A stretch of 63,134 nucleotides of DNA, from the NCBI GenBank assembly GCA_903910445.1, contig CAIVZR010000050.1:1-63134 (forward strand), in the 5' to 3' direction. The translations under genes and the position numbers were made by a program. This document shows, piece by piece, positions 40,556 to 57,560 of this stretch (its first letter is position 1; every line of letters starts with the position of its first letter). The notes beneath the pieces were generated by a model that saw only the letters and a program-made list of their open reading frames with translations, ran no database searches and was not told the DNA's origin. Source of the DNA: an uncultured Bacteroidota bacterium (GTDB lineage Bacteria > Bacteroidota > Bacteroidia > UKL13-3).

Positions 40556-40584
40556 CGCGCCTTTTGGGCACCTTTATCCAGTCT

Positions 40585-41724
40585 ATGAAACCTATCCGAA
40601 TGGTCGATCTCGAAACTCAATACGGGAAGATCAAAACTGAAATTGATACTGCCATTGCGGCGGTTATTCAGTCGATGGTTTTTATTAAAGGTCCCGAAGT
40701 AGCTCGTCTGGAAAAACAACTCGCCGAATACCTTCAAGTAAAGCATGTGATTGCATGCGCCAATGGCACCGATGCCTTGCAGATTGCGATGATGGCCCTC
40801 GACCTAAAACCTGGGGATGAAGTAATCACCGCCTGTTTCACTTATGCCGCCACCGCCGAAGTGATTGCTTTACTAAAACTCAAACCCGTTTTGGTGGATG
40901 TCGACCCCGATACTTTCAACCTCGATATTGAAGCCGTAAAGAAAGCCATCACCTCAAAAACCAAAGCCATTGTACCGGTTCATTTGTTTGGGCAATGCGC
41001 CGATATGGAGCCATTACTTGCTTTGGCTGCCAGGCACCAACTTCACATCATTGAAGATGCTGCCCAAGCCATTGGTGCCGAATATGTTTTTGGAGATGGT
41101 AGCATCAAGAAAGCGGGAACGATGGGAAACATCGGAACGCTCTCTTTTTTTCCAAGCAAAAATTTAGGATGCTTTGGAGATGGAGGAGCCATCTTAGTAA
41201 ACGATGATGCGCTCGCTGCAAAAATTCGTCGCATTGCCAACCACGGTCAGTCGAGCTTATACCAGCATGATGAGGTAGGTGTGAACTCCCGCCTGGATGC
41301 CATACAAGCAGCCATACTGCTGGTTAAATTGCCGCATCTAAATACATATAATCAGGCACGCCAAAAAGCTGCTGATTATTATGATGCCCAGTTTAAAAAT
41401 CATCCCAATATTAAAATACCTATGCGAGCTGCACATCGCTCCCATACATTTCATCAATACACCCTGCAACTAAAGGGTATTGATCGCGATGCATTGAAAG
41501 CGTACTTGAAGCAACTCGAAATTCCAAACACGGTGTATTACCCGATGCCGTTGAATACGCAAAAAGCTTATTTGCAAGAAGGCGATTTTACCGTAACACA
41601 AAAACTATGTGATACCGTGCTTTCTTTGCCGATGCATAGCGAATTGGAAATGGAACAACTGGAATATATCACCCAACACATACTTAAATTTTTAAAAGAT
41701 CAAACTTTAATACCATCAATATGA
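40585..41724 (+). CDS. DegT/DnrJ/EryC1/StrS sugar aminotransferase, WbpE-like
   Basis: 379-residue PLP-dependent aminotransferase acting on a nucleotide-sugar ketone. CANGTDALQIAMMAL (PLP phosphate site), ACFTYAATAEVI, HLFGQCADMEP, EDAAQAIGAEY and SFFPSKNLGCFGDGG (Schiff-base Lys in the SKN) are all present. The overall pattern is closest to WbpE, the enzyme making UDP-2-acetamido-3-amino-sugars. Its stop overlaps the ugd start (ATGA), so the two are coupled and presumably feed an amino- or uronic-acid sugar into surface glycans. The sugar itself is inferred. Confidence 0.9.
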   Translation: MKPIRMVDLETQYGKIKTEIDTAIAAVIQSMVFIKGPEVARLEKQLAEYLQVKHVIACANGTDALQIAMMALDLKPGDEVITACFTYAATAEVIALLKLKPVLVDVDPDTFNLDIEAVKKAITSKTKAIVPVHLFGQCADMEPLLALAARHQLHIIEDAAQAIGAEYVFGDGSIKKAGTMGNIGTLSFFPSKNLGCFGDGGAILVNDDALAAKIRRIANHGQSSLYQHDEVGVNSRLDAIQAAILLVKLPHLNTYNQARQKAADYYDAQFKNHPNIKIPMRAAHRSHTFHQYTLQLKGIDRDALKAYLKQLEIPNTVYYPMPLNTQKAYLQEGDFTVTQKLCDTVLSLPMHSELEMEQLEYITQHILKFLKDQTLIPSI

Positions 41725-43040: not shown

Positions 43041-43111
43041 GAATCATTTTACAGAATCAACGTAAGTTATAAAAAAAGAAAAAGTATTTTTGAACCACTA
43101 AAACAAGTTAT

Positions 43112-44212
43112 ATGTCAGATACACAAGCCTTATTAAATACAGCCCTTACCGCTTTACATACCCAATTAGGTGCTAAGATGGTACCTTTTGCAGGATATAA
43201 TATGCCAGTATTATATACCAATTTGATTGAAGAACATAACGCAGTGCGCAATAGCGTGGGGGTGTTTGATGTTAGCCATATGGGTGAATTTTATATTAAA
43301 GGCGAACGTGCCCTCGACCTATTACAATATGTTACGAGCAATGATGTAAGTAAATTATTTGATGGTAAGGTTCAATACAGTTGCTTGCCTAATAACGAAG
43401 GTGGTATTGTAGACGACTTATTAGTGTATCGCGCCAATGCCAACGAATACTATTTGGTAGTGAATGCAAGCAATATTGAAAAAGACTGGAACTGGATTAG
43501 CGAACAAAATAAAAAATTTGGTTGCGAGATGACCAACTTGAGTAACGACTATAGCTTACTCGCAGTGCAAGGTCCGAATGCACAAAAAGTACTTCAAAAA
43601 TTAACTGCCGAAAATCTGGATATGGAATACTATACCTGGAAAAATGGCATGATGGCTGGCGTTGATAATGTAATCATCTCTTGCACAGGTTATACCGGTG
43701 CTGGTGGTTATGAAATTTATATGTTGAATAAAGACGCTGAACATTTTTGGAATGCCATTATGGAAGCTGGTGCTGAGTTCGATATTAAACCTGCCGGATT
43801 GGGCGCCCGCGATACCTTACGCACAGAGATGGGATTTTGTTTATACGGTCACGATATCAACGATACCACATCACCTATTGAAGCGGGATTGGGCTGGATT
43901 ACCAAATTCACCAAAGAGTTTGTGATGAGCGATTATCACAAAAAAATAAAAGAGAATGGACCAGCAAAAAAATTGTGTGGATTCGAAATGATCGATCGTG
44001 GTATCCCTCGTCAGCACTATGTGATTGAAGATGTAAACGGTAATGTGATTGGTGAAGTAACCAGTGGAACACAATCGCCAACCCTCGGAAAAGCAATTGG
44101 CATGGGCTATGTAACGCCAGCATTTGCGAAAGAAGGAAGTGAAATCTATATCTTGATTCGCGACAAAAAATTAAAAGCATCGGTAGTAAAAATGCCGTTC
44201 TTGAAAAAATAA
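43112..44212 (+). CDS. gcvT: Glycine cleavage system T protein (aminomethyltransferase)
   Basis: 366-residue tetrahydrofolate-dependent aminomethyltransferase. It takes the aminomethyl group from lipoylated H protein and gives methylene-THF and ammonia. The family pattern is complete: GAKMVPFAGYNMPVLY, VFDVSHMGEF, YSCLPNNEGGIVDDLLVY, TGYTGAGGYEIY, and GLGARDTLRTEMGFCLYGHDI, with the conserved catalytic Asp/Arg. The length matches bacterial GcvT. Neither gcvH nor gcvP is adjacent, so it is encoded apart from its partners. It starts 71 nt after ugd, with A/T-rich sequence between. Confidence 0.97.
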   Translation: MSDTQALLNTALTALHTQLGAKMVPFAGYNMPVLYTNLIEEHNAVRNSVGVFDVSHMGEFYIKGERALDLLQYVTSNDVSKLFDGKVQYSCLPNNEGGIVDDLLVYRANANEYYLVVNASNIEKDWNWISEQNKKFGCEMTNLSNDYSLLAVQGPNAQKVLQKLTAENLDMEYYTWKNGMMAGVDNVIISCTGYTGAGGYEIYMLNKDAEHFWNAIMEAGAEFDIKPAGLGARDTLRTEMGFCLYGHDINDTTSPIEAGLGWITKFTKEFVMSDYHKKIKENGPAKKLCGFEMIDRGIPRQHYVIEDVNGNVIGEVTSGTQSPTLGKAIGMGYVTPAFAKEGSEIYILIRDKKLKASVVKMPFLKK

Positions 44213-44255
44213 TAAACTTAAATTAAATCTTTTTACACTTTAAATAATTACAATT

Positions 44256-44732
44256 ATGTACGATTACTTATTAATGCTTCACAACCTTTTTCGTTGGTTA
44301 GTTTTATTCATTGCCATCTATACCCTCTATATCAATTTTGTGGGCTGGAAAAACGCTAAAACTTATACCCGACGTGATAAGGTAATGAATAGCACCTTTG
44401 TAGGCATGCTCGATTTACAATTAATCATTGGGCTGCTTTTATATTTTGTGTTTAGTCCAACCACCAAACTTGCTTTCAGTGATATGCGCTATGCGATGCA
44501 TAACCCTGAATTACGCTTTTATGCGGTAGAACATATTGCAGGTATGGTGATTGCAATCATCATCGCACATATTGGTGGTGCATTATCAAAACGTTCAAAA
44601 AGCGATACCCACAAATTTCGTAAAGCATTCATCTTTTTTGGAATTGCTTTATTGTTGATCTTGTTGAGTCTGCCATTCACCTTCCATGGTGGAGCACGCC
44701 CATTGAATCCTTTTGATCACGTGGGAATGTAA
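44256..44732 (+). CDS. Small four-helix membrane protein, unknown function
   Basis: 158-residue membrane protein with four hydrophobic helices (~4-25, 48-70, 90-112, 120-145). It has conserved-looking residues at its ends (LMLHNLFRWLVLF, EHIAGMVIAIIIAHIGGA, HGGARPLNPF). The His residues in the first and third helices could be haem ligands, as in small cytochrome b-like proteins, but I cannot confirm it. It follows gcvT by 43 nt and may be co-transcribed. Its 3' end converges on the next gene at 44764. Confidence 0.65.
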   Translation: MYDYLLMLHNLFRWLVLFIAIYTLYINFVGWKNAKTYTRRDKVMNSTFVGMLDLQLIIGLLLYFVFSPTTKLAFSDMRYAMHNPELRFYAVEHIAGMVIAIIIAHIGGALSKRSKSDTHKFRKAFIFFGIALLLILLSLPFTFHGGARPLNPFDHVGM

Positions 44733-44763
44733 GCTGGCATTGATTGCCTTCTGAAAATAAATT

Positions 44764-45738
44764 CTACTTCTTATTTGGAATACTATCCGTTGGGGTGGGC
44801 TTCGGTTGTTCGTCGCGTGGCGGATGCAATTTCCTGTACTTTTTCGAACGCTCTTCTATATCATCATTCTTGGTTTTGATGGTTCCATTATCGAAGAGCA
44901 TTTCCTTTAAGTTCCAATAACCGTCTTTAAATTCGAAGTAATCGTAACTGCCATCGGGGAAATACAATTCATAGAATCCTAATGCTTTGGGAGTAAGCGG
45001 TGCCAAATGATCGAACACAATGTATTTCTTTTCTGCCTCAAAGGTGAGCACCATATTTTGAACTTCATTGCTATATTCAAATACCACACGGTTCATGATA
45101 TCGTTGGGGCCTACCTTAAAAATAGGTGCTCCAAAAACAACAGTCCCTTCCTGAAATCGAAGTACATCAATCACTTTCTTATTACTTTTTTTATTCGCCC
45201 CATTCCATCCAATTAAAGTATAACATGTTTCGTTCTTCACTTTCACGGGCAATATTTTATAATACAATGCACCCCACCAAAAGTTATTATCTACGGTAGT
45301 ATCTTCGGGGTGCTTAATTAACGGACCCGCATCGAAAAGTGGTATGAGGGTAACCCCCGTTTTGATATTGCGTTGTATGGCGCCATAAAAGCGATAAGAG
45401 TCGTCGTTGTTTCTCAGGTTCCAGGTAATAATACGAAAAGCATCATCGGGCGATTTTACGATGGATAATTGCTTGAGCGAGTCGAATGGGTAATTGAAAG
45501 ACCCTGGCAAACTAAGCGCCATCACCAGGTTGCGTATCAAACTATAGCAAGATGTTTTTCGGGTAGCAAAATCGGGCGATTCAATAATGGCTTCTGCCTG
45601 TCCTTGCATTTGAAGTTCCAGGTTTTTTAGTGAATCTAAGTTTTCGGGGGTAATGCCCTTGATAGGTTGCGCTTGTAAGGCTCCTGTGAGCAGCACCAAA
45701 AAGCTCACGATAACAAATTTCAAACGGAGTCGTTTCAT
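44764..45738 (-). CDS. Secreted hypothetical protein
   Basis: 324-residue predicted exported protein that I do not recognise. The signal peptide is ~23 residues (ending LQAQ). The rest is mixed alpha/beta with no catalytic motif; characteristic stretches are DDAFRIITWNLRNNDDSYRFYG and LTPKALGFYELYFPDGSYDYF. The C-terminal 45 residues are Lys/Pro-rich and likely disordered. ATG 45738 (or 45741) is chosen because the longer frame from 45849 would start before the TTTTCTTTGC promoter-like sequence near 45765. It is encoded after the AtpZ-like gene on the same strand. Confidence 0.65.
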   Translation of the reverse strand: MKRLRLKFVIVSFLVLLTGALQAQPIKGITPENLDSLKNLELQMQGQAEAIIESPDFATRKTSCYSLIRNLVMALSLPGSFNYPFDSLKQLSIVKSPDDAFRIITWNLRNNDDSYRFYGAIQRNIKTGVTLIPLFDAGPLIKHPEDTTVDNNFWWGALYYKILPVKVKNETCYTLIGWNGANKKSNKKVIDVLRFQEGTVVFGAPIFKVGPNDIMNRVVFEYSNEVQNMVLTFEAEKKYIVFDHLAPLTPKALGFYELYFPDGSYDYFEFKDGYWNLKEMLFDNGTIKTKNDDIEERSKKYRKLHPPRDEQPKPTPTDSIPNKK

Positions 45739-45793
45739 CATATATAACATCTGCATAACGATGCAAAGAAAAGGAATCGTATTTGAAGTGGTG

Positions 45794-46030
45794 TTAATTT
45801 TTGTTGCTCGTGCTTTTAAAAACAGGATAAAGCGCGCCAAACAAACCAATAAACATCCCCGATAAAATTCCTGCAGGAAATTTCCATTGAGTCCACTTAT
45901 CGAATTGATGCCCTAAATAAACGCAGATGAGTATGGTGGCCAGCATTTGAATGGCCAGTCCAGAGTATTTCGCGTAATCGCTCAGCGAGCTCTTTTTATT
46001 GTTGTTGTGGTGCGGAGGCTTTGGATCCAT
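45794..46030 (-). CDS. AtpZ/AtpI-like membrane protein
   Basis: 78-residue protein with two transmembrane helices (~25-45 and 52-72) and a charged His-rich N-terminus (PKPPHHNNNKKSS). The pattern is typical of AtpZ/AtpI-like proteins encoded near F-type ATP synthase operons, thought to help c-ring assembly or bring Mg2+. No atp genes are next to it in the window. The gene overlaps the 3' end of the bactofilin gene by 35 nt. ATG 46030 is chosen over TTG 46042. Confidence 0.75.
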   Translation of the reverse strand: MDPKPPHHNNNKKSSLSDYAKYSGLAIQMLATILICVYLGHQFDKWTQWKFPAGILSGMFIGLFGALYPVFKSTSNKN

Positions 46031-46418
46031 TTTGTTTGGCAACCTGATGTTCCAGTTCGCTATTCATTTTACAAGTCCCATTAAATTCGGCCCCATTCTC
46101 TACTATAATTTTCCCGACCACCAGGTCGCCATAAATTTTAGCGGTTCCTTTTAAGAATAGGCTCTCTGTAACTTGCACATTGCCGATTACCTTACCCGAG
46201 ATAACAGCATCGTTGGCAATGATATTGCCTTTCACTTCTCCACTATCGCCAATCACAACACGCGATTTACAATGCAAAGCGCCTATGACCATGCCTTCAA
46301 TACGCATGTCACCTTGCGACATAATATCTCCATTGATTTCGGTGCCTTTGGAGATGATATTAATTGAAACATTCGGGTCGAATGCTGCAGGCTTTTTGGT
46401 TGAATTGAATATTGCCAT
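45996..46418 (-). CDS. Bactofilin (polymer-forming cytoskeletal protein)
   Basis: 140-residue bactofilin. Residues ~20-125 are a series of six-residue beta-helix turns (for example GDIMSQGDMRIEGMVIG, VKGNIIANDAVISGKVIGNVQV, GDLVVGKIIVENGAEFNG), the right-handed beta-helix that polymerises into filaments and organises cell-wall or envelope proteins. The N-terminus, AIFNSTKKPAAF, is short and hydrophobic and may bind membrane. ATG 46418 is taken as the start, since the frame from 46499 has no support. Its 3' end overlaps the AtpZ-like gene. Confidence 0.93.
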   Translation of the reverse strand: MAIFNSTKKPAAFDPNVSINIISKGTEINGDIMSQGDMRIEGMVIGALHCKSRVVIGDSGEVKGNIIANDAVISGKVIGNVQVTESLFLKGTAKIYGDLVVGKIIVENGAEFNGTCKMNSELEHQVAKQNGSKASAPQQQ

Positions 46419-46588
46419 GGTATTTGTAATTTCAAATATCGTAATAATCTGCTGATTGCCAAAATTTAGTTCCTTATAATATTTCGCAGCATTTTGCAAA
46501 AGAATCAGATGTTGAAGACCTAACGAAAATCATTTTAAAAAAATCTGTTTTATTTTTTTATTTGTTCCAAATGGTAAGAAAAAAAATA

Positions 46589-46596
46589 TATTTTTG
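46589..46596 (+). promoter_or_regulatory. -7 promoter element (TATTTTTG)
   Basis: Exact TAnnTTTG match 35 nt before the small acidic gene at 46632. Confidence 0.55.
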
Positions 46597-46631
46597 TTTA
46601 GTAATTAAATCAGCAATACAATTTTATCAGA

Positions 46632-46841
46632 ATGGAAAATTTAAAGAATCAACCTCACGGAAAACCAAAATCAAAGAAAGATTTTGATGAGGATGATGAG
46701 ATCATGGAAACGCAAGAAGACTATTCAGTAGTGGATGAAGATGACGACTATGTTGAGCCAAGTGGCCCTAAAAAAGAAGAATTGAAAAGTGCTGAATTCC
46801 TAATTCAGGACGATGACGACGACGAAGAAGAAGAGTTTTAA
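46632..46841 (+). CDS. Small highly acidic protein
   Basis: 69-residue protein of unknown function, dominated by Asp and Glu, with a Lys/Pro-rich N-terminus (NQPHGKPKSKKDF) and a final run of eleven acidic residues before a Phe. It is probably disordered. It has its own -7 box and a normal ATG, so it looks like a genuine gene. It could be a nucleoid- or ribosome-associated acidic tail protein, but nothing proves this. Confidence 0.6.
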   Translation: MENLKNQPHGKPKSKKDFDEDDEIMETQEDYSVVDEDDDYVEPSGPKKEELKSAEFLIQDDDDDEEEEF

Positions 46842-46863
46842 TTTCGTGATTACTTTATGCCGT

Positions 46864-47244
46864 TTATTTTTTCGGCGGCTCCCACAATTCTATTTTATTT
46901 TCTTCCGGATCAAGAATCCAGCCAAATTTGCCGAAGTCGCCTTCTTCCATGGCATCGAGTACTTGCACGCCCTCACTTCTCAACGCGGCAATCAATGCAT
47001 GTAAATCGTGTACAACAAAATTCAGCATGAATTGTTTATTCGATGGCGAAAAATATTGGGTATCTTCTTTCGTCGGACTCCATACGGTATAAGCTTCTCC
47101 CGTTTCTTCATCGGGTGCTCTCCAGTCGAATTTACAGCCCCAGTTTTCGGTCATCAGGCCTAAATGGTTTTTGTACCAGGTACGCAATGCTTCGGGGTCT
47201 TTGCTTTTAAAAAACACACCGCCAAGGGCTATTACTCTTTTCAT
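46864..47244 (-). CDS. VOC family protein (glyoxalase/bleomycin-resistance fold)
   Basis: 126-residue vicinal-oxygen-chelate protein made of paired beta-alpha-beta-beta-beta modules: GGVFFKSKDPEALRTWY at the start, FSPSNKQFMLNFVVHDL in the middle and GWILDPEENKIELWEPP at the end, where the final Glu is the usual metal ligand. The family covers glyoxalases, dioxygenases and resistance proteins; here the role is unknown. The gene has an exact -7 box only 4 nt before its ATG, so the mRNA is probably leaderless. Confidence 0.88.
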   Translation of the reverse strand: MKRVIALGGVFFKSKDPEALRTWYKNHLGLMTENWGCKFDWRAPDEETGEAYTVWSPTKEDTQYFSPSNKQFMLNFVVHDLHALIAALRSEGVQVLDAMEEGDFGKFGWILDPEENKIELWEPPKK

Positions 47245-47248
47245 AATA

Positions 47249-47256
47249 CAAATATA
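47249..47256 (-). promoter_or_regulatory. -7 promoter element (TATATTTG) of the VOC gene
   Basis: Exact box immediately upstream of ATG 47244, leaving almost no space for a 5' leader or a Shine-Dalgarno site. Confidence 0.55.
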
Positions 47257-47272
47257 TAGAATGTGAGGACAA

Positions 47273-50200
47273 CTATACGTGCGACAGAATTTGCATTCCT
47301 TCTACCGTATTCTTAATATTTCGCACGACCAAAATTAAATTCTTGGAAGTTTGTTTCATCTGGCAGCGTATGGGATTGGCTTGCACAAATTGCATGAAAC
47401 GCGAAAATTTCTCCGATGCAAAATATTCACTCTTGGGATTGCCAGGGAAATAACATTGCATAGACGATTGACGTATGGTGATTTTTTCTAAGCCCAATGC
47501 TTTACCTACCCATTTCAATCGCAGGGAGTCGGCGAGGGTATGCACCTGTGGTGGCAAGGTGCCAAATCGATCTTTCAATCGAGATAAAAATTTCTTTAGT
47601 TCTTCTTCTGCTTTCAATCCGCTGAGTTCACTATATAAGGCCAGTCGTTCGGCATTATTTCTAATATAATAATCGGGAATGAGCATCTCTTCATCGGTCT
47701 CCACGGTGCAATTGGCAGAGGTTTCACGAATCTTCGCAACCTCCTCGGTGAACAAGCCACTGAACTCATCGAGCTTTAATTCCTGAATGGCTTCATCCAA
47801 AATTTTATGATACATCTCAAAACCAATCTCTGCAATGAATCCACTTTGTTCGCCACCCAGCAAATTCCCGGCACCACGAATATCCAAATCGCGCATCGCC
47901 ACATTGAAGCCACTTCCCAGTTCCGAAAACTCTTCGATAGCACTCAGTCGCTTCTTGGCATCGTCGGTCATGGCACTGATGGATGGAACCAATAAATAAC
48001 AAAATGCTTTTTTATTACTTCGTCCCACACGGCCACGCATCTGGTGCGTATCGCTCAATCCAAACATATGCGCATTATTGATGATGATGGTATTCGCATT
48101 GCTAATATCCAGTCCCGCTTCAATAATGGTGGTAGCAACCAATACATCGTATTCGCCCTCCACAAATTTTATCATTACATTTTCGAGCTGCTCCCCTTCC
48201 ATCTGCCCGTGTGCCACATTCACACGTGCTCTCGGGCAAAGCCTGCGAATCATATTCGCAATATCTTCTATATCCTTCACCCGGTGATGCACAAAAAATA
48301 CTTGTCCGCCGCGACCAATTTCATAGTTGATGGCACCCTTAATTAATTCTGGAGTGAAGTTATGTAACTCCGTTGTTACCGGCTGCCTATTAGGAGGTGG
48401 CGTATTGATTACACTTAAATCGCGTGCACCCATGAGTGAGAAATGAAGGGTACGAGGGATGGGTGTTGCCGTGAGCGTGAGCGTATCTACATTTACTTTG
48501 CGTTCTTTCAATTTCTCTTTCGCTGCCACTCCAAATTTTTGCTCTTCATCAATAATCATCAATCCCAAATCTTTAAACTTCACATCCTTACTCACAATAC
48601 GATGCGTGCCAATGAGTATATCTACCTTGCCTTCGGCTACCTTTTGCAAAGTTTCTTTTTGTTCGCCTTTCGTTTTAAAACGATTCACATAATCAACAGT
48701 CACCGGAAAATCTTTGAATCGTTCCTTCATCGTTTTATAATGCTGATGTGCTAAGATGGTAGTAGGTACCAATATTGCTACCTGCTTACTATCGCATACC
48801 GCCTTAAAAGCCGCACGCATCGCCACTTCCGTCTTACCAAATCCAACATCACCACATACCAAACGATCCATAGGATGCGGGTTTTCCATATCGCGTTTTA
48901 CTTCTTCCGTCGATTTCGATTGATCGGGTGTATCCTCATACATGAAGGAGGCTTCGAGTTCCATCTGCATGTAGTTGTCGGGACTGTATTGAAACCCTGG
49001 CTCTGCCTTGCGTTTGGCATAGAGCAAAATCAGTTCACGAGCAATATCTTTTACCTTCTTCTTCGTGTTCTGTTTCATCTTCTCCCATACATCGCTGCCA
49101 ATCTTGTGTACGCGGGGCTCGGTTCCATCCTTACCAACGTACTTCGCAATCTTGTATAGTGAGTTGATACCAACAAAAAGCAAATCCCCATCGCGGTAGA
49201 TGAGCTTCACCACTTCCTGATTCACCCCATTGGGGTCTTTCATTTTGGCAAGTCCGGCAAACTTTCCAATACCATGATCGATATGCGTTACAAAATCTCC
49301 AGGTTGTAAATCGCGCAGCTCCTTTAACGTGAGTGCTTTCGATTTTGAAAATGTTTGTCGCGTTTTATAATTATAGTAACGATCAAAAATTTGATGTTCG
49401 GTATAGCAGGCTACACCCAGCTCATGATCGATGAAACCCTCGCTGATACCGTGATACAGCGGTTCGAACTTCACCTCCCGATCGATATCATGAAAGATGG
49501 TATAGAGACGCTCTACTTGTTTGGAAGTATCAGAAAAAACGAGGTTGAGAATATTTTCCGACTGATTTAATTTTAAGTTCTCGATGAGGAAATTAAAATT
49601 TTTATGAAATGTTGGCTGAGGTGAAATTTTAAATTCAAACTCCGTATGGTTCTTGAATAAGGGGCGGGTACCGAGTTCCAGCACATGAAATTTTTGCAAT
49701 GGGACCATGAACTCATCACCACCAATGAAGCTTTGAATGAACTCCGGCAGACTTTCAAATTTCTCCAGCAAGGTATCTTTCAGCGCACTCAATCCATCTT
49801 TAATATCCTTCCCATCCTTCAGCCATATCAAGGTATCGGGAGGAAGATAATCGAGGAGGGTACTAAACTGCTCATCCTCTTCCTTATTAATTTTAGGGAC
49901 AATATTGAGCCACATCACATCCTTATGTGAGAGCTGGGTGATGGGATCGAACTCCCTCAAACTTTCGATGGTATTGCCATTGAAATCGAGACGGTAAGGG
50001 TAATCGTGGGCATAGCTAAACACATCCACAATACCACCGCGAACGGCGTACTGCCCGGCTTCATATACGAAGTCGGTGCGTTCAAAATCCCAGAGGCTCA
50101 GTTGTTCCGATAGGGCATCCATATTCATCTCCTCATTCACTTTTATCTGGATGGTTTTATCGGTGAGTTTCTTTTTGGAGATAACCTTTTCGGCAATGGC

Positions 50201-50584
50201 TTCGGTATAGGTCACCACGAGGCTGGGGGTTCCTTCTTTCAGGCTTATTTCACCCAGGGCTTCGGTACGCAGATGCACCTTATTATTTTCATAATTTTCG
50301 GGATGCACTTCACGTTTGAAACTGCTATCGAGGAACAGCACTTTTTTCCCATCGCTCAGGCTTTCGAGGTCGGTATGAAAGTAGTGTGCTTCTTCTTTAG
50401 AAGCAAAAACGAAACAAAAATTACGGGGCTTTTGGTAGTATAAACTGGCAGAGAGCAGCGCTTTTGAAGAGCAAAACAATCCCTTGAGATGCAGACGTTG
50501 TGGGGTATATGCGTCGAGGCACCTTAATATATCTTTCGTCTTCTCTTGTGCAGCATATTGCTGCAGCAACTCAGCTATCTTCAC
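47273..50584 (-). CDS. mfd: Transcription-repair coupling factor (Mfd)
   Basis: 1103-residue DNA translocase that removes stalled RNA polymerase at lesions and recruits UvrA. The N-terminal UvrB-like region (residues ~1-350) comes first. The RNAP-interacting domain starts at about 430 with LQPGDFVTHIDHGIGKFAGL. Helicase motifs follow: GDVGFGKTEVAMRA (Walker A), IDEEQKFG (DEEQ), TATPIPRTLHFS, and MRGRVGRSNKKAF (motif VI). The C-terminal TRCF domain runs to the end (LKDRFGTLPPQV). The length is normal. The start is GTG, close after a TACCTTCG box. With uvrA it covers transcription-coupled excision repair. Confidence 0.98.
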   Translation of the reverse strand: MKIAELLQQYAAQEKTKDILRCLDAYTPQRLHLKGLFCSSKALLSASLYYQKPRNFCFVFASKEEAHYFHTDLESLSDGKKVLFLDSSFKREVHPENYENNKVHLRTEALGEISLKEGTPSLVVTYTEAIAEKVISKKKLTDKTIQIKVNEEMNMDALSEQLSLWDFERTDFVYEAGQYAVRGGIVDVFSYAHDYPYRLDFNGNTIESLREFDPITQLSHKDVMWLNIVPKINKEEDEQFSTLLDYLPPDTLIWLKDGKDIKDGLSALKDTLLEKFESLPEFIQSFIGGDEFMVPLQKFHVLELGTRPLFKNHTEFEFKISPQPTFHKNFNFLIENLKLNQSENILNLVFSDTSKQVERLYTIFHDIDREVKFEPLYHGISEGFIDHELGVACYTEHQIFDRYYNYKTRQTFSKSKALTLKELRDLQPGDFVTHIDHGIGKFAGLAKMKDPNGVNQEVVKLIYRDGDLLFVGINSLYKIAKYVGKDGTEPRVHKIGSDVWEKMKQNTKKKVKDIARELILLYAKRKAEPGFQYSPDNYMQMELEASFMYEDTPDQSKSTEEVKRDMENPHPMDRLVCGDVGFGKTEVAMRAAFKAVCDSKQVAILVPTTILAHQHYKTMKERFKDFPVTVDYVNRFKTKGEQKETLQKVAEGKVDILIGTHRIVSKDVKFKDLGLMIIDEEQKFGVAAKEKLKERKVNVDTLTLTATPIPRTLHFSLMGARDLSVINTPPPNRQPVTTELHNFTPELIKGAINYEIGRGGQVFFVHHRVKDIEDIANMIRRLCPRARVNVAHGQMEGEQLENVMIKFVEGEYDVLVATTIIEAGLDISNANTIIINNAHMFGLSDTHQMRGRVGRSNKKAFCYLLVPSISAMTDDAKKRLSAIEEFSELGSGFNVAMRDLDIRGAGNLLGGEQSGFIAEIGFEMYHKILDEAIQELKLDEFSGLFTEEVAKIRETSANCTVETDEEMLIPDYYIRNNAERLALYSELSGLKAEEELKKFLSRLKDRFGTLPPQVHTLADSLRLKWVGKALGLEKITIRQSSMQCYFPGNPKSEYFASEKFSRFMQFVQANPIRCQMKQTSKNLILVVRNIKNTVEGMQILSHV

Positions 50585-50590
50585 AGAATG

Positions 50591-50598
50591 CGAAGGTA
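50591..50598 (-). promoter_or_regulatory. -7 promoter element of mfd (TACCTTCG)
   Basis: TAnnTTCG box 6 nt before the GTG start of mfd, implying a nearly leaderless mRNA. Confidence 0.5.
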
Positions 50599-50762
50599 CG
50601 ATTTCGAATTGGAAGCGTTGGGAGAATTTGGGAAAAAGTACTTGGTTTTTGGTCTTTAGTAATTAGTAAATAGTAAATACAGCGAAAGGAATTAGGGTAA
50701 AGGGGTTAGTTATTCGAGATGTTTGCAGAATTCACTTCGCAATGGAATCTTAAACGGGTCCT

Positions 50763-50827
50763 AACTTTTCCAAAGTTTGAAACTTCGAGATATATTCGAT
50801 GATTCGTGATTGAACTTTGGAAAAGTT
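50763..50827. repeat. 15-bp inverted repeat with 35-nt loop
   Basis: AACTTTTCCAAAGTT at 50763-50777 is exactly complementary to AACTTTGGAAAAGTT at 50813-50827. No reading frame links the arms. It could be a transcribed hairpin or a mobile-element remnant. Confidence 0.75.
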
Positions 50828-50860
50828 TAAAGAGCATGGCAAGATTATTTATGCAGCATT

Positions 50861-50920
50861 ATTGCAAATCAAAGATTTGCTTACGCTTCCATGAAGTCGG
50901 AGGCTTCGCGGAGCCAGGCC
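50861..50920 (+). repeat. Paired-hairpin repeat of the GCAAATC family, copy 1
   Basis: Hairpin GCAAATC-AAA-GATTTGC at 50864-50880, then GAAGTC-GGA-GGCTTC at 50893-50907. It shares the plan of copy 2. Confidence 0.7.
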
Positions 50921-50958
50921 GGCAATTTTTTCTTAATAGGTATTGTAATTTGTACAGC

Positions 50959-51031
50959 GCTATTGCAAATCTTTGATTTGCAATAGCCACAATGAAGTCA
51001 GTAACTTCGCTGAGACGAAGCGATTCATTGT
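50959..51031 (+). repeat. Paired-hairpin repeat of the GCAAATC family, copy 2
   Basis: Perfect 13-bp stem with TTT loop at 50959-50987 (GCTATTGCAAATC with its complement), then GAAGT/ACTTC at 50994-51008, CTTCG/CGAAG at 51006-51021, and flanking ACAATGAA/TTCATTGT arms (50989-50996, 51024-51031). Confidence 0.75.
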
Positions 51032-51086
51032 ACACGATAAACTCAATGCTTATGAGCCTGGAATAACTTCTATTTCAATGGCGGTC

Positions 51087-51956
51087 TTAAAATGATCTCA
51101 CCGCCCGAACGTTCAGATTCAAACTTTTGATTTGTGACTGTTTAATCCCACCAGAACCAAAGTCTTCACACATAGCGAAACTTGCTAGTATATCGCTTGA
51201 ACTCCAATAAAATGCGTTATCAAATCCGCCAAGCATTACCCTCTTTTTATATAGCTCATGTAACTCATCAATAGTAGGTAAATACCAATCACTGTAATTT
51301 CCTATCACCAAATCTGAACACAATTTAGCAGCATATATTCCCTGATCTTGAATTTTTACAATATGATTCGTATTTGCAAAGCCAAAACCAATATTTGTTT
51401 CGGATGCACCTGTATATAAAGCAAATCCTATCCCCCATGGTATTCCCTTCGATTGATCGGTTGGTGCGGCAATAATTCCATGTAAATAGGTACTATCGTA
51501 ACCCTCATCTCCTGGTTTTAAAATATAGGCCACCGTTCCACCCTGATATTGACTACCAAGGAATAATGAATCCGTTTTAAATGTGACCGTATTGCCATAT
51601 CCTGTTCCTTCCTTACTGTAATTTCTGGCGTAGGCACGCAAGTAATAAACTGTATTCGGTAATAATCCAGTAATTATGCTTTGGAAGCTTCCTTTACCTG
51701 ATCCATTTTCTGTTTTACTATCGGCGATTGTAGGGTTATCTTTTACACTCCAGCATACTCCTTTTACTATTATATCACTTCCCCCATCCAAAGTAATTTT
51801 CCCACCGCAGATGGCTGAATCGAGTTTGATTGAGGTTACATCAGCAGTAGTTAATTTTGGAACCTGGCTCGAAACTTTCGTGCAACTATGAAAAGTAATT
51901 GAAATTAAGACAATGAGGATTGGTTGAAAAATGCTAAGTTTTATTTTTTGATTCAT
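51087..51956 (-). CDS. Lipoprotein with FN3-like and DUF1566 domains
   Basis: 289-residue probable lipoprotein. The signal ends in FHSC with lipidated Cys25. Residues ~33-130 form a fibronectin-type-III-like domain (LTTADVTSIKLDSAICGG, TGLLPNTVYYLRAYARNYSKEGTGYGN). The C-terminal region (~140-289) has the DUF1566 signature: GNYSDWYLPTIDELHELYKKR, then FDNAFYWSSSD. The family is common among paralogous surface lipoproteins of Bacteroidota and Fibrobacter. It probably sits on the outer membrane. It is an isolated gene next to the repeat region. Confidence 0.85.
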   Translation of the reverse strand: MNQKIKLSIFQPILIVLISITFHSCTKVSSQVPKLTTADVTSIKLDSAICGGKITLDGGSDIIVKGVCWSVKDNPTIADSKTENGSGKGSFQSIITGLLPNTVYYLRAYARNYSKEGTGYGNTVTFKTDSLFLGSQYQGGTVAYILKPGDEGYDSTYLHGIIAAPTDQSKGIPWGIGFALYTGASETNIGFGFANTNHIVKIQDQGIYAAKLCSDLVIGNYSDWYLPTIDELHELYKKRVMLGGFDNAFYWSSSDILASFAMCEDFGSGGIKQSQIKSLNLNVRAVRSF

Positions 51957-52113
51957 AACTGAGATTTTAGTTTTGCGAAGTAATATATTATATACGAAAA
52001 TAGCGATTCTTTTTATCTGCTATAAAAATAACTCCCTTCTCTTTCGCATTGCTATCTGTTTGTGATTTCTTTCCACCACATCACACACGTATTCCATTTT
52101 ATTTTTTTGCACA

Positions 52114-52130
52114 TACTAAAATATTTAGCA
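52114..52130. promoter_or_regulatory. dinB-side operator A (TACTAAA-ATA-TTTAGCA)
   Basis: Palindrome with 7-bp arms and one mismatch, first of a pair before dinB. It starts after CA, like the site at 39519, sharing 17 consecutive bases with it. Confidence 0.7.
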
Positions 52131-52136
52131 TAAAGA

Positions 52137-52153
52137 TACTAAAATATTTGGTA
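52137..52153. promoter_or_regulatory. dinB-side operator B (TACTAAA-ATA-TTTGGTA)
   Basis: Second palindrome, 23 bp centre-to-centre from operator A, the same distance as at the repressor gene. TAATTTTC at 52152-52159 is a weak -7 candidate overlapping this site. Confidence 0.7.
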
Positions 52154-52212
52154 ATTTTCAAACCCGAAAATAAAAAAATAAACACGCGAAAACGCAATCA
52201 ATTAATATCAAC

Positions 52213-53439
52213 ATGGATCGCAATATTGTACATATCGACCTCGACTCCTTCTTTGTATCGGTAGAACGACTCATTAATCCAAAACTCATTGGGAAGCCGG
52301 TGCTCGTAGGTGGCACCAGCGACCGGGGCGTTGTGGCCTCCTGCAGCTACGAGGCCCGGGCCTTCGGCGTGCACTCGGCCATGCCCATGAAAACGGCCAG
52401 GCAACTTTGTCCAGAAGCCATCATCGTACGCGGCGACTCGGGCGAGTACAGCAAATACTCCAATATCATTACCGATATCATCAGCGAAGATGTGCCCCTC
52501 TATGAGAAATCATCCATCGACGAATTCTATATCGACTTCACTGGCATGGATCGCTTCTTTGGCTGCTATAAAATGGCAACGGAACTCCGACAGCGCATCA
52601 TCCGTGAAACGAACCTCCCCATTTCGTTTGCGATGTCGGCCAACAAAACCGTCTCGAAAGTGGGAACAGGAGAAGCCAAACCCAACGGACAAAAAGAAAT
52701 TCCCTGGGGAACAGAAAAGGGTTTCTTAGCACCTTTATCCATTCGCAAAATTCCAATGGTGGGCGATAAAACATATCAGCTTCTTCGCGATATGGGCGTG
52801 CTTTGGATTCGTACCCTGCAAGATATGCCCATGGAACTGATGCAGCAAGTGCTGGGCGAAAATGGTGCCGTCATCTGGAAGAAAGCCAATGGCATCGACA
52901 ACTCGCCAGTGATCCCGTATTCCGAACGCAAATCCATCTCCACCGAACGCACCTTCGATAAAGATACCATTGATGTGAAAGCGCTCAAAGGAATTCTTAT
53001 TGGCATGACGGAGAAGCTCGCCTTCCAGTTGCGCGGCGAACAGAAACTCACTGCCTGCGTCACTACCAAAATTCGTTATTCCGATTTCAATACCTATACC
53101 ATGCAAGCCCGCATTCCATATACCTCCCTCGATCATGTACTGATAGAAAAGGTGAGTTCACTCTTCGATAAACTATATCAGAAACGAATGCTCATCCGAC
53201 TCATTGGCATTAAATTTAGTCACTTGATTCAGGGAGGATACCAGTTTAATATGTTTGAAGATACGGTGGAACAAGTGCAGCTATACCAGGCCATGGATAA
53301 GATGCGTAACCGCTATGGCAAGGATGCCGTAAACCGAGCGGCAGGCATGGATTTCAAGCCCCACGATTTCAATGCGTTCAATGGAATAAAACGATATGGT
53401 GCAGTGGAGCAAGAGAAGAAGAATCAAAATAAAAGATAA
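52213..53439 (+). CDS. dinB: Y-family DNA polymerase (DinB/Pol IV-type)
   Basis: 408-residue translesion polymerase. Motifs are HIDLDSFFVSVERL with the metal-binding Asp near residue 9, YSKYSNIITDIISEDVPLYEKSSIDEFYIDFTG with the second acidic pair near residue 103, and AMSANKTVSKVGTGEAKP (helix-hairpin-helix region). The little-finger domain ends in GGYQFNMFED, whose QFNMF matches the beta-clamp binding motif. The protein is ~55 residues longer than E. coli Pol IV at its C-terminus, like other Bacteroidota DinB. Two LexA-like operators precede it, so damage induction is likely. Confidence 0.96.
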   Translation: MDRNIVHIDLDSFFVSVERLINPKLIGKPVLVGGTSDRGVVASCSYEARAFGVHSAMPMKTARQLCPEAIIVRGDSGEYSKYSNIITDIISEDVPLYEKSSIDEFYIDFTGMDRFFGCYKMATELRQRIIRETNLPISFAMSANKTVSKVGTGEAKPNGQKEIPWGTEKGFLAPLSIRKIPMVGDKTYQLLRDMGVLWIRTLQDMPMELMQQVLGENGAVIWKKANGIDNSPVIPYSERKSISTERTFDKDTIDVKALKGILIGMTEKLAFQLRGEQKLTACVTTKIRYSDFNTYTMQARIPYTSLDHVLIEKVSSLFDKLYQKRMLIRLIGIKFSHLIQGGYQFNMFEDTVEQVQLYQAMDKMRNRYGKDAVNRAAGMDFKPHDFNAFNGIKRYGAVEQEKKNQNKR

Positions 53440-53483: not shown

Positions 53484-54323
53484 TTATTTCCCTTTTATTT
53501 TTTTGTTTTGCTGTGCCACTAGTTTTTTTGCTGAAATTGTACTTACTACTTTCTTGCCCGTTTTTTCTTCAATTGCTCTCCGGGTATTGCCCGCAATTGT
53601 ACCCCCTTGTTTTGCAATAATTTTATTTTGATCAAATGTTTTTGGCTTTTTTTCTTTGCTAATTTCTGTGGTGGTGGCTTCGGCAAGCATATTGAGTACC
53701 AATTCCAAATTGGTCATATTATCCCTAAGGTTTTCTTTTTTAAGGTCTTTGTGGTTTTTGTATTCTTTTACTGAAAGTCCACTCCACGCTTTGGTTATTT
53801 CATCAGTAAGTATCGCGTATTCTTGTCCTTTTTTTACGCCACGTTCATCCCATTCATCGGTGAGTTCTTTACGTACCTCAATGCTTTTCAATCGTTGGTT
53901 TATCCACTCTTTGCTATACCCTTTTTTAAGGTATGTTTCCATCAAGCGGTCAATGCCTATTTCGGGATCTTCTATTTCATCTAATCGTTCCCGGGCTACT
54001 TTTGCAATCCATAATTTAAAGGGTTCTGCTTTAGGTGATGGAACGGATTGAATTAAACGAAATAATTGCTCTGTCTCTGCAACATCAGTTTTGTAAAATT
54101 TACCATCAGTTGATTGCATTTTCAGTTGGTTACAGTTTGTAACCAACTCACTTCCTTCCTTTTTCAACCTCGATTTAAGCACTTTCCAATAGTTGTTTGG
54201 GTTAAGGCTGTCAGTAAGCACACCTATTACATCTACAATAGAAAAATACCATTTTTCTTCCTCTTCATTCCAAATACTTCGTACCTGCTTTTGCTCAAAT
54301 AATTTTATAGAAGTTGTTTTCAT
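53484..54323 (-). CDS. BRO-N domain protein (DinD/phage-antirepressor-like)
   Basis: 279-residue protein of the BRO/KilA-N-like family that includes phage antirepressors and relatives of DinD, an SOS-induced protein. The N-terminal domain (~1-120) has KLFEQKQVRSIWNEEEEKWYFS, VDVIGVLTDSLNPNNYW and TDVAETEQLFRLIQSVPSPK. The rest is helical with the highly conserved YLKKGYSKEWINQRLKSIE and EITKAWSGLSVKEYKNHKDL, and a basic C-terminal tail. It lies between dinB and dnaE but on the opposite strand. It has its own exact -7 box (54370-54377), 46 nt upstream. Its role here is unknown. Confidence 0.85.
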   Translation of the reverse strand: MKTTSIKLFEQKQVRSIWNEEEEKWYFSIVDVIGVLTDSLNPNNYWKVLKSRLKKEGSELVTNCNQLKMQSTDGKFYKTDVAETEQLFRLIQSVPSPKAEPFKLWIAKVARERLDEIEDPEIGIDRLMETYLKKGYSKEWINQRLKSIEVRKELTDEWDERGVKKGQEYAILTDEITKAWSGLSVKEYKNHKDLKKENLRDNMTNLELVLNMLAEATTTEISKEKKPKTFDQNKIIAKQGGTIAGNTRRAIEEKTGKKVVSTISAKKLVAQQNKKIKGK

Positions 54324-54605: not shown

Positions 54606-57560
54606 ATGCTCCTCAATTGCCATACCTACTACAGTTTTTGCTACGGCACGTTCTCTATTGAAGCGCTGCTGGAGGAGGTGCGCCGCAATGGGTATACCTC
54701 CTTTGCGCTTACCGATATCAATAATACTTCCGCCATACTCGATAGTGTACGCATGGCGCAAAAGCTCGGTATCAAGCCTGTTGCAGGCATCGACTTTCGC
54801 AATCAGGCACAACAACAATACATTGGCATTGCACGCAATAACGATGGCTTCAAAGAACTCAACGAACATCTCTCGTCACACCTGCACCACAATACGCCTT
54901 TCAATCCTATCGCTCCCGCATTCAATCATGCATTCATTGTGTACCCCTTGCATGCCTATCGCGGACACGCATTAAAAGATTATGAGTTCATTGGCATTGC
55001 TCCCAAAGACCTGCAGAATCTGCCTTTGCTGCCAGTACGACATCAGCTAAAAAAGATGGTGGTACTGCAAACTGCTACCTTCGCCAATAAGCGGCAATTC
55101 AATGCCCATCGCCTGCTGAGGGCCATCGATACCAATACCTTGCTTAGCAAACTCGCGCATGAGCAGCAGGCCAAAGGCACCGAGATGATGATGCCCATTG
55201 AAGCGCTCCTGAAAATGTATGAAGAATATCCGCAGCTACTCGTCAACACACAAAACCTCCTCGAGCAATGTAGTATTGATTTTGAATACGGGAAGCTCGC
55301 CAATAAAAATTTAAAACATTATACCTCCTCCATACCAACCGATGTGGCATTGCTTCGCAGCGAATGCATGAACGGACTTCATTACCGCTATCCCAATCCA
55401 TCGCAAGAGGTAATGCAGCGCATCGAAAAAGAACTCGATGTGATTACCCAGCTCAATTTCTCTTCCTACTTCTTAATCAATTGGGATATCATACGCTATG
55501 CCCAACATAAGAACTATTATTATGTGGGGCGAGGGAGTGGTGCAAATAGTATCGTAGCCTATATCCTGCGCATCACCGATGTTGATCCCATTGAACTCGA
55601 CCTGTACTTCGAGCGTTTCATTAATATGCACCGGCAAAATGCGCCCGACTTCGACATGGATTTTTCGTGGACCGACCGCGACGATATCACGCATTATATC
55701 TTTCATCGTTTTGGCTACGAACGCACTGCTTTGCTGGGTGCATACAATACCTTTCAGCACGATGCCGTGATTCGCGAACTGGGCAAAGTGTTTGGCATCC
55801 CGCCAGGAGAAATTGACCGGCTACAACGCGCCAACCGCTATCCCGATATCGACGAAACAGGGAAGCAGGTATTGCGCTATAGCAAATTCATCGAAGGGTT
55901 TCCGAGTCATCTTAGCATCCACTCGAGCGGCATCATCATCTCCGAAGCGCCCATCTCCTACTATACAGGAACGAATATGCCACCCAAAGGATATCCTACC
56001 ACACAATTCAGTATGCTCGAAGCTGAAGATATTGGATTGTACAAATTCGATATCCTGAGTCAGCGCGGATTGGGAAAAATAAAAGACTGTGTTGATCTCG
56101 TGAAAGAGAATAAGGAAATAGAAATCGACATCCATCAGGTGGCGGCTTTCAAACAGGATGAGGCGGTGAAAGCACTGCTGCGTAAAGGAAATACGATAGG
56201 ATGTTTTTATGTTGAATCGCCCGCCATGCGTATGTTGCTTGCCAAGCTGCGTGCCGACGATTACCTGCGACTGGTGGCCGCGAGTTCCATCATACGCCCT
56301 GGTGTAGCCAAGAGTGGGATGATGCGCGAATACATTGTGCGCTATCGCGATGAGCGCCTGCGTGAAAAAGCGAAGCTGGCACTTCCCGAGCTGTATCACT
56401 TGCTGGAAGAGACTTACGGCGTGATGGTGTATCAGGAAGATGTGATAAAAATTGCGCATCTCTTCGCGGGGTTGAGTTTGGCCGAGGCCGATTACCTGCG
56501 CCGGGGCATGTCGTGGAAGTTTAAAAAGCGTAATGAATTTGAACTGGTGCGGGAGAAATTTTTTGTGAACTGCCGAAAGAAAGGATACCAGGAAAATCTC
56601 ATTCTCAATATCTGGACACAGATTGAAAGCTTTGCCAATTTTGCATTTTCCAAGGGGCACTCGGCAAGCTATGCGGTAGAAAGTTATCAGGCATTATATC
56701 TCAAAGCCTACTACCCACTCGAGTATATGGTGGCCACACTCAATAACGGGGGCGGCTATTATCGCAAGGAATTATACATTCATGAGGCACGGATGCATGG
56801 CGCACAAATTATTTTACCATGCATCAATAATAGCACAGCACTGAGTACCATTCAAGGAAATAAAATTTATTTGGGGCTGGGCATGGTTGGTGAGCTCGAG
56901 CATCATAGCATCGAACAAATTATGGAAGAACGCCAGCGGGCAGGTGCCTTTCGCAACCTCGACGATTTCGTGCGGCGCGTGCCCTTATCGATAGAGCAGA
57001 TGCGGCTCCTGATACGTGCGGGTACGTTTCAGTTTACAGGCCGAAAGAAGAAAGAACTGCTTTGGGAAATTCATGCGATGCTGCAGCCTGCCAAAGCACC
57101 GAAGCAGGTAGCGGAGCTGTTTGAAATAGAAATAAAAAAATGGGCCTTGCCCGAACTTACCGATACCTTTATTGATGCTGCTTTTGATGAGATGGCGTTG
57201 TTTGGATTCTCACTCATATCCCCATTTGAGTTATTGCAAGATCCGATGCCGAGTGCACTGAAGTCGGAAGATTTAAAAAAATATATTCGCAAAAACGTGA
57301 GTATCGTAGGGTATCTCATCACTGTAAAACCCACCCGTACTTCCAAGGGAGAGCAAATGTATTTTGGCACCTTCATCGATAAAGATGGGTATTGGATTGA
57401 TACCGTACATTTCCCTCCCAGTGCCAAGCAGTACCCTTTCATGGGGCCGGGCTGCTATTTGCTCAAAGGCAAGGTGGTGGAAGAATACGACTTCATCAGT
57501 ATGGAAGTGGCCTCCATGAAACGCTTGCCCATGGTGGATCGGGAGAAAGCCGTGGTGTGA
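54606..57560 (+). CDS. dnaE: DNA polymerase III alpha subunit homologue, short (DnaE2-like)
   Basis: 984-residue C-family polymerase, shorter than the replicative DnaE. The PHP domain starts at once (LLNCHTYYSFCYGTFSIEALL) but lacks the HxH and the usual LTDHG (LTDINN instead), so metal-dependent proofreading is unlikely. The catalytic motif is PDFDMDFSWTDRDD at ~347-360, with GRGSGANS upstream and the SKGHSASYAVESYQ region downstream. An OB domain ends the protein (VSIVGYLITVKPT); no clear tau-binding tail is seen. Together with dinB these features suggest an error-prone polymerase pair. The start is a normal ATG; TACTTTG at 54539-54545 is a near -7 box. Confidence 0.93.
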   Translation: MLLNCHTYYSFCYGTFSIEALLEEVRRNGYTSFALTDINNTSAILDSVRMAQKLGIKPVAGIDFRNQAQQQYIGIARNNDGFKELNEHLSSHLHHNTPFNPIAPAFNHAFIVYPLHAYRGHALKDYEFIGIAPKDLQNLPLLPVRHQLKKMVVLQTATFANKRQFNAHRLLRAIDTNTLLSKLAHEQQAKGTEMMMPIEALLKMYEEYPQLLVNTQNLLEQCSIDFEYGKLANKNLKHYTSSIPTDVALLRSECMNGLHYRYPNPSQEVMQRIEKELDVITQLNFSSYFLINWDIIRYAQHKNYYYVGRGSGANSIVAYILRITDVDPIELDLYFERFINMHRQNAPDFDMDFSWTDRDDITHYIFHRFGYERTALLGAYNTFQHDAVIRELGKVFGIPPGEIDRLQRANRYPDIDETGKQVLRYSKFIEGFPSHLSIHSSGIIISEAPISYYTGTNMPPKGYPTTQFSMLEAEDIGLYKFDILSQRGLGKIKDCVDLVKENKEIEIDIHQVAAFKQDEAVKALLRKGNTIGCFYVESPAMRMLLAKLRADDYLRLVAASSIIRPGVAKSGMMREYIVRYRDERLREKAKLALPELYHLLEETYGVMVYQEDVIKIAHLFAGLSLAEADYLRRGMSWKFKKRNEFELVREKFFVNCRKKGYQENLILNIWTQIESFANFAFSKGHSASYAVESYQALYLKAYYPLEYMVATLNNGGGYYRKELYIHEARMHGAQIILPCINNSTALSTIQGNKIYLGLGMVGELEHHSIEQIMEERQRAGAFRNLDDFVRRVPLSIEQMRLLIRAGTFQFTGRKKKELLWEIHAMLQPAKAPKQVAELFEIEIKKWALPELTDTFIDAAFDEMALFGFSLISPFELLQDPMPSALKSEDLKKYIRKNVSIVGYLITVKPTRTSKGEQMYFGTFIDKDGYWIDTVHFPPSAKQYPFMGPGCYLLKGKVVEEYDFISMEVASMKRLPMVDREKAVV

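What the first reader, a model, noticed from the sequence alone, without database searches (positions are those of the whole stretch)
52112..52153. The same operator pair, with identical 23-bp spacing, lies upstream of dinB
TACTAAA-ATA-TTTAGCA (52114-52130) and TACTAAA-ATA-TTTGGTA (52137-52153) repeat the repressor-gene operators in sequence, order, orientation and spacing. 17 consecutive bases (52112-52128) are identical to 39517-39533, and similarity continues into a TTTTCAAA segment after each pair. I saw no other pair in the window. This strongly suggests a regulon joining the LexA-like repressor to the Y-family polymerase.
Basis: partly seen in the sequence, partly recalled or inferred. 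Interest (0 to 1): 0.85.

Follow-up and report, generated by a model that had tools for sequence, protein, structure and literature searches.

The report
Duplicated SOS operator pair at dinB
A pair of binding sites for the cell's DNA-damage repressor sits in front of an error-prone DNA polymerase gene; it is a copy of the pair in front of the repressor's own gene, left behind when two genes that once shared a control region were pulled 12 kb apart, so the polymerase very probably stays switched off until DNA is damaged.

Summary
Two 17-bp palindromes, 23 bp centre to centre, lie at 52114-52153 upstream of dinB and at 39519-39558 at the start of an HTH_3-S24 repressor gene. They match at 35 of 40 bases, and no other such pair exists in the 3.43-Mb genome. 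The sites fit CTAA-N5-TTAG, the published motif of the Bacteroidetes 'non-canonical LexA' (PMC8565304). The repressor is the genome's only S24 protein, and its Ala-Gly cleavage site and Ser-Lys dyad are invariant among relatives. Of 25 perfect sites in the genome, only five are intergenic: repressor, dinB, recA, a SplB-like radical SAM gene and a topoisomerase IV/gyrase B gene, all published regulon genes. Two things go beyond the papers read. (1) The 23-bp spacing is nearly invariant at the repressor promoter in about 80 relatives. (2) In relatives, repressor and dinB are adjacent, divergent and share one pair; here a 12-kb block separates them and each kept a copy. The same happened independently in a second genus. 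This explains the shared orientation, and shows a self-contained repressor-polymerase unit becoming a dispersed regulon. Binding and induction are inferred.

The parts
38761..39519 (-). S24 repressor (HTH_3 + Peptidase_S24, 252 aa), non-canonical LexA; scissile A106-G107, S143/K182 dyad, C-terminal extra helix
   Evidence: Pfam; invariant residues in 15 and 37 relatives; only S24 protein in the genome; model with CI-like N-domain and LexA/CI C-domain
39519..39535 (.). operator 1 of the repressor gene, TACTAAAATATTTAGTA; overlaps the predicted transcription start and the first base of the ATG
   Evidence: conserved in relatives
39536..39543 (-). -7 element TAGGTTTG of the repressor promoter, in the spacer between the operators
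   Evidence: fits Bacteroidota consensus TANNTTTG (PMC6847099); relatives of the family that keep the motif all end in TTG here
39542..39558 (.). operator 2 of the repressor gene, TACTAAATTATTTGGTA; lies between -7 and -33
   Evidence: sequence; consensus TTTG/TANNTTTG
39571..52111 (.). about 12.5-kb segment (esterase, DegT, UDP-glucose dehydrogenase, GcvT, bactofilin, AtpI-like, Mfd, lipoprotein) that separates repressor and dinB here; absent between them in relatives
   Evidence: synteny in G024, G032, G014, G018
52112..52162 (.). duplicated control region; matches the single intergenic region of G024 at 94% over 49 bp, as does the repressor side (47 bp)
52114..52130 (.). operator 1 at dinB, TACTAAAATATTTAGCA
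52131..52138 (-). decayed relic of the repressor's -7 element (TATCTTTA; near-invariant final G lost)
   Evidence: repressor copy reads TAGGTTTG, unsplit relatives TATGTTTG/TACGTTTG
52137..52153 (.). operator 2 at dinB, TACTAAAATATTTGGTA
52152..52159 (+). candidate -7 element of dinB, TAATTTTC (5 of the 6 defined bases of TANNTTTG; no convincing -33)
   Evidence: inference from sequence; relatives with dinB only 71-79 bp away require the start site here
52213..53439 (+). dinB, Y-family DNA polymerase IV, 408 aa
   Evidence: PF00817/PF11799, one NCBIfam DNA polymerase IV model over its cut-off
53484..54323 (-). Bro-N domain gene inserted antisense between dinB and dnaE2
   Evidence: PF02498; absent between the two genes in relatives
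54606..57560 (+). DnaE-type polymerase III alpha subunit, dinB's downstream neighbour in relatives; no operator of its own here

Best explanation
The element is an SOS operator pair. The single S24 repressor of this uncultured Bacteroidota (a non-canonical LexA with a phage CI-like DNA-binding domain) binds the pair as two dimers, one per 17-bp palindrome, 23 bp apart, and blocks dinB. At its own gene the matching pair encloses the -7 box, with operator 2 between -33 and -7 and operator 1 over the start site and start codon, so it represses itself. On DNA damage, RecA filaments trigger cleavage of the repressor at Ala106-Gly107 by its Ser143/Lys182 dyad. This would release dinB, the repressor gene and, through single sites, recA, a SplB-like radical SAM gene and a type II topoisomerase B gene. 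The pair at dinB is a duplicate. The ancestor had repressor and dinB(-dnaE2) back to back sharing one pair; a rearrangement put about 12.5 kb between them and each gene kept one copy of the roughly 50-bp control region. At dinB the two operators were kept while the now useless repressor -7 box decayed. Shown here: sequence, conservation, synteny, homology, genome-wide scan. Inferred: binding, cooperativity, cleavage, induction.
For: Paired motif only at these two genes in the genome; 35/40 identity far above random. Only one S24 protein in the genome. Cleavage and catalytic residues invariant. Five intergenic perfect sites, all at published regulon genes (with PMC8565304). Repressor-dinB divergent neighbours with one shared pair in G024, G032, G014, G034, G018, G035 and others. 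Synteny shows the insertion between conserved flanks. G024's single intergenic region matches both sides here at 94% (E 6e-17 and 1e-15). Self-similarity of 70 distinct repressor upstream regions peaks only at 23 bp (57% of loci with 9/12 or better; at most 6% at any other spacing). Between this genome and G037 the dinB pair has 0 differences in 40 columns against 22 in 220 in the flanks. Between the two copies, 0 of 16 half-site bases differ against 9 of 39 others. Independent second case in G022. Published EMSA and mitomycin C induction for the CTAA-N5-TTAG repressor of P. actiniarum DSM 19842, with polymerases the most strongly induced.
Against: No binding or expression data for this organism. 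The motif as a whole is not enriched in the genome (25 matches against 69 for the reversed control); only the intergenic subset is telling. dinB's own promoter is only weakly recognisable. Spacing is 22 bp in two genera with a drifted motif (read) and 34 bp at umuDC in another, so 23 bp is not absolute. Selection estimates rest on few sites. The remnant of the repressor start codon at dinB (CAT) is not conserved in G037.
Confidence: 0.87

Rival explanations
1. The dinB pair arose by convergent point mutation or by transfer of dinB with its own operators, not by duplication of a shared control region.
For: Short sites can arise by mutation; recA and others carry independently placed single sites.
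Against: Both sides match the one intergenic region of G024 at 94% over 47-49 bp including spacer and flank; same + strand order; conserved outer synteny; in G022 homology of the two sides runs about 290 bp.
Confidence: 0.06
2. The 23-bp spacing reflects only promoter geometry (both sites must flank the -7 box), not contact between two bound dimers; the repressor binds the two sites independently.
For: In the repressor promoter the -7 box fills the spacer exactly; single sites serve recA, radical SAM and topoisomerase genes.
Against: The spacing is kept at dinB in G000, G037 and G022 where the repressor -7 box has decayed; the umuDC pair in genus g2 is 34 bp, one helical turn more; a CI-like repressor on 17-bp sites with a 6-bp gap resembles lambda OR (own knowledge of lambda spacing).
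Confidence: 0.35
3. The dinB pair is a non-functional relic of the duplicated repressor promoter and dinB is expressed without regard to the repressor.
For: dinB promoter is weak by consensus; duplication alone would leave a pair.
Against: 0 of 16 half-site changes against 9 of 39 elsewhere in the duplicate; no change in the pair between G000 and G037 against 10% in flanks; operators kept in two independent splits while the -7 box was lost.
Confidence: 0.08
4. Another, unrelated repressor of the HTH_3 type uses these sites.
For: HTH_3 proteins are common and the scan was for S24 domains only.
Against: The sites sit on the start of the S24 repressor gene in most of about 80 relatives and drift with it; the same motif was shown by EMSA to bind a family member.
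Confidence: 0.04

Closest known systems
Non-canonical LexA of Bacteroidetes, CTAA-N5-TTAG group (Sanchez-Osuna et al. 2021, PMC8565304)
   Same: HTH_3 + S24 architecture, Ala-Gly and Ser-Lys residues, motif, self-regulation, control of dinB, recA, splB and topoisomerase IV, multiple sites in some promoters, extra C-terminal helix
   Different: The main text does not discuss a fixed spacing of site pairs or the separation of a shared control region; its two tested species (P. actiniarum, S. agarivorans) are from other lineages
Elizabethkingia anophelis SOS regulator with an oppositely transcribed error-prone polymerase gene (PMC8565304, Figure 8)
   Same: repressor and polymerase genes in opposite orientation and both induced by mitomycin C
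   Different: motif TTAC-N5-GTAA; genes still adjacent
FddR of Francisella, fddR-dinB divergent units (PMC13148647)
   Same: phage-type S24 repressor with divergent dinB; authors propose that regulons grow from such self-contained units
   Different: motif GTG-N11-CAC, separate S24 clade; there modules accumulate, here one module split and its operators were duplicated
Lambda CI with OR1-OR3
   Same: CI-like helical N-domain, 17-bp operators in tandem with a 6-bp gap, S24 C-domain
   Different: not a phage; two sites, not three; cooperativity untested here; lambda spacing is from own knowledge

Membership tests
Bacteroidetes non-canonical LexA (CTAA-N5-TTAG group) | HTH_3 N-terminal domain plus S24 peptidase domain | tested here: met
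   PF01381 and PF00717 above cut-off; fold hits to lambda-type repressors and LexA (model of modest confidence)
Bacteroidetes non-canonical LexA (CTAA-N5-TTAG group) | Ala-Gly scissile bond and Ser-Lys dyad | tested here: met
   A106, G107, S143, K182 invariant
Bacteroidetes non-canonical LexA (CTAA-N5-TTAG group) | CTAA-N5-TTAG sites in its own promoter and in SOS gene promoters | tested here: met
   repressor, dinB, recA, radical SAM, type II topoisomerase B
Bacteroidetes non-canonical LexA (CTAA-N5-TTAG group) | extra C-terminal helix absent from LexA and CI | tested here: inconclusive
   helix 232-241 predicted but pLDDT below 50; conserved sequence LNLxSIMxMLRSM
Bacteroidetes non-canonical LexA (CTAA-N5-TTAG group) | falls in that clade of the S24 tree | not tested
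   published tree sequences were not fetched; placement rests on motif and architecture
Bacteroidetes non-canonical LexA (CTAA-N5-TTAG group) | DNA-damage induction and RecA-dependent cleavage | not testable with these tools
   needs culture and protein
Canonical LexA (winged HTH, COG1974) | LexA-type winged HTH DNA-binding domain | tested here: not met
   N-domain is HTH_3; closest single-domain folds of the N-domain are P22 c2 and SinR-type
Lambda CI-type cooperative tandem operators | 17-bp operators with fixed short spacing | tested here: met
   23-bp peak over 70 distinct upstream regions
Lambda CI-type cooperative tandem operators | pairwise cooperative binding | not testable with these tools
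   needs binding assays

The most novel reading that the evidence does not exclude
A self-contained divergent unit (repressor and polymerase sharing one operator pair) has been turned into a dispersed regulon by duplicating its control region as the genes separated, independently in two genera. After the split the operators and their spacing persist while the redundant promoter box decays. The near-fixed 23-bp spacing through motif drift points to cooperative CI-style repression as the conserved core of the SOS switch in this part of the Bacteroidota.
Probability: 0.6. Interest if true: 0.62.

Novelty: new member of a known kind. Interest (0 to 1): 0.5.

Why it matters
How a repressor that controls only its neighbour becomes the head of a scattered network is an open question for SOS evolution; PMC13148647 proposes that S24 regulons grow from self-contained divergent units. 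Here close relatives with the unit intact and two independent lineages with the unit split, each keeping a copied operator pair, show one such step directly, and it can be placed on a tree and tested. The spacing result suggests that the Bacteroidota SOS repressor kept a phage-like way of binding, which is easy to test.

Tried and rejected
First single-site pattern (TACTAAANNNTTTRGTA, 2 mismatches) gave 170 hits, fewer than its control, and was uninformative; its three extra 1-mismatch sites (C6, C25, C62) are not at SOS genes. Considered that dinB's pair carries a repressor gene fragment: no detectable gene remnant in G000, only about 10 similar bases, and the CAT is not conserved in G037. 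Tested whether dnaE2 has its own operator: none found. The second dinB-like polymerase (C3:67458) has no site. Class-wide scan for pairs: rare and of mixed spacing, so 23 bp is a feature of repressor orthologues of this group rather than shown for the whole class. Order-level search returned the same 64 genomes as the family. The last whole-genome search went to the Bro-N gene, so the origin of the 12-kb block was not traced. Searches failed on input errors and were repeated or dropped.

Full report
Observation. Both pairs are 17-bp sites 23 bp apart, the 17-base identity is exact, and the 40-bp blocks match at 35 of 40 bases, against at most 28 in 100 randomised windows. In the 3.43-Mb genome the paired pattern occurs only at these two places.

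One correction. The pairs have the same orientation on the + strand, but the repressor gene is transcribed leftward and dinB rightward. Relative to the genes they are therefore opposite. This detail turned out to be the key to the history.

Genes. The repressor (38761-39519, minus) has HTH_3 and S24 domains and is the only S24 protein of the genome. Ala106-Gly107, Ser143 and Lys182 are invariant in alignments of 15 and 37 relatives. A model of modest confidence (mean pLDDT 63; N-domain mostly above 80) resembles lambda/186/P22 repressors at the N-terminus and LexA and CI at the C-terminus. dinB (52213-53439) is a DNA polymerase IV.

Known system. Sanchez-Osuna et al. 2021 (PMC8565304) described non-canonical LexA proteins in Bacteroidetes: HTH_3 plus S24, motif CTAA-N5-TTAG, binding shown by EMSA, induction by mitomycin C, with error-prone polymerases most strongly induced. 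The regulon includes recA, dinB, umuDC, splB and topoisomerase IV, and several promoters hold two or more sites. All four sites here fit CTAA-N5-TT(A/G)G.

Regulon in this genome. RCTAANNNNNTTAGY matches 25 places (reversed control 69, so the motif is not enriched overall). Twenty lie inside open reading frames. The five in intergenic DNA are at the repressor, dinB, recA (about 90 bp upstream), a PA0069/SplB-type radical SAM gene (about 71 bp) and a topoisomerase IV/gyrase B gene (about 167 bp). Five of five at genes of the published regulon is strong independent support. Whether the topoisomerase is ParE or GyrB was not settled. Only repressor and dinB have pairs.

Promoter anatomy. On the repressor strand, TTTG (39564-39567), 20 bp, TAGGTTTG (39536-39543) fits the Bacteroidota consensus TTTG/TANNTTTG with a start 4-5 nt downstream (PMC6847099). 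Operator 2 lies between the boxes, the -7 box fills the spacer, and operator 1 covers the predicted start site and touches the ATG. dinB's promoter is less clear; TAATTTTC at the edge of operator 2 is the best -7 candidate, and in relatives where dinB begins 71-79 bp from the repressor start the promoter must lie here.

Spacing. In most of the 80 relatives fetched by sequence, the repressor start region carries the same arrangement. A scan that compares operator 1 with all upstream offsets from 10 to 60 bp over 70 distinct regions has one peak, at 23 bp (57% of loci with at least 9 of 12 outer bases shared, at most 6% at any other offset). The spacing holds while the motif drifts from CTAA to CTAT or CTAC half-sites. 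Exceptions: 22 bp in genera g10 and g14 with a further drifted motif (read by eye), and 34 bp, about one helical turn more, at umuDC in genus g2. Outside the family, pairs found by pattern are rare with mixed spacing. I read the spacing as a sign of contacts between adjacent dimers, as in lambda, but promoter geometry alone remains possible.

History. In the unsplit members of the family, repressor and dinB are divergent neighbours sharing one operator pair, and dnaE follows dinB, about 16 bp away in G018. Gene order in G014 is OmpA, HGD, cold-shock gene, repressor, dinB, dnaE, RluE-like. The window has the same outer order, but about 12.5 kb (esterase to lipoprotein, including mfd) lies between repressor and dinB, and a Bro-N gene between dinB and dnaE. 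G037, a near relative, shows the same split. G024's single intergenic region matches both edges at 94% over 47-49 bp. So the roughly 50-bp control region was duplicated as the genes parted. This accounts for the shared + strand orientation and the shared TTTTCAAA, which holds the repressor -33 box.

After the split. At dinB the repressor -7 box decayed (TATCTTTA, without the near-invariant final G), whereas the half-sites show 0 of 16 changes against 9 of 39 elsewhere in the copy, and the pair shows none between G000 and G037 against 10% in the flanks. Each comparison is small, but they agree.

Independent repeat. In G022 (another genus) repressor and dinB are 100 kb apart. dinB has its own pair at 23 bp, the two sides are homologous over about 290 bp including some 26 bp of the repressor's 5' end, and the repressor -7 box is lost at dinB. 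Its sister G011 is unsplit. This fits duplication of the unit followed by loss of one gene from each copy.

Verdict. The observation and the regulon are right. As a system it is a new member of a known kind. New relative to the papers read are the near-fixed pair spacing and the recurrent splitting of the repressor-dinB unit with a copied operator pair, which bears on the proposal in PMC13148647 that S24 regulons grow from self-contained divergent units. Supplementary tables of PMC8565304 were not readable here, so the spacing may be recorded there. Binding, cooperativity, cleavage and induction in this organism are inference.

Noticed in passing
53484-54323 (minus): Bro-N domain gene antisense between dinB and dnaE2, in this genome and G037; very close to phage family phrog_15286 and weakly to anti-repressor Ant. 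Bro-N proteins of phages can be antirepressors, so a link to the CI-like repressor is conceivable but untested.
   Followed up: partly
54324-54605: No operator upstream of dnaE2, which in relatives follows dinB directly; the Bro-N insertion may have uncoupled it from damage control.
   Followed up: partly
L109 1501-1547; L111 1501-1547: umuDC operon of genus g2 carries an operator pair at 34 bp centre to centre, 23 bp plus about one helical turn.
   Followed up: partly
L048, L049 and L051, upstream of the repressor gene: Genera g10 and g14 have a drifted motif (GCTTA-N5-GTAGC) with 22-bp spacing and the two sites inverted relative to each other.
   Followed up: no
L146 and L147: Independent separation of repressor and dinB by 100 kb in G022 with a second operator pair at dinB and about 290 bp of shared control region.
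   Followed up: yes
L230: Second Y-family polymerase of the genome (353 aa, MNRKIIHIDMDAFFASVEQ) without any operator, presumably not under this repressor.
   Followed up: partly
36825-37408, 38096-38749, 57598-58128, 58665-59219: Several GNAT acetyltransferase-like genes lie around the repressor and dinB regions; those near the repressor are absent from the same place in close relatives.
   Followed up: no
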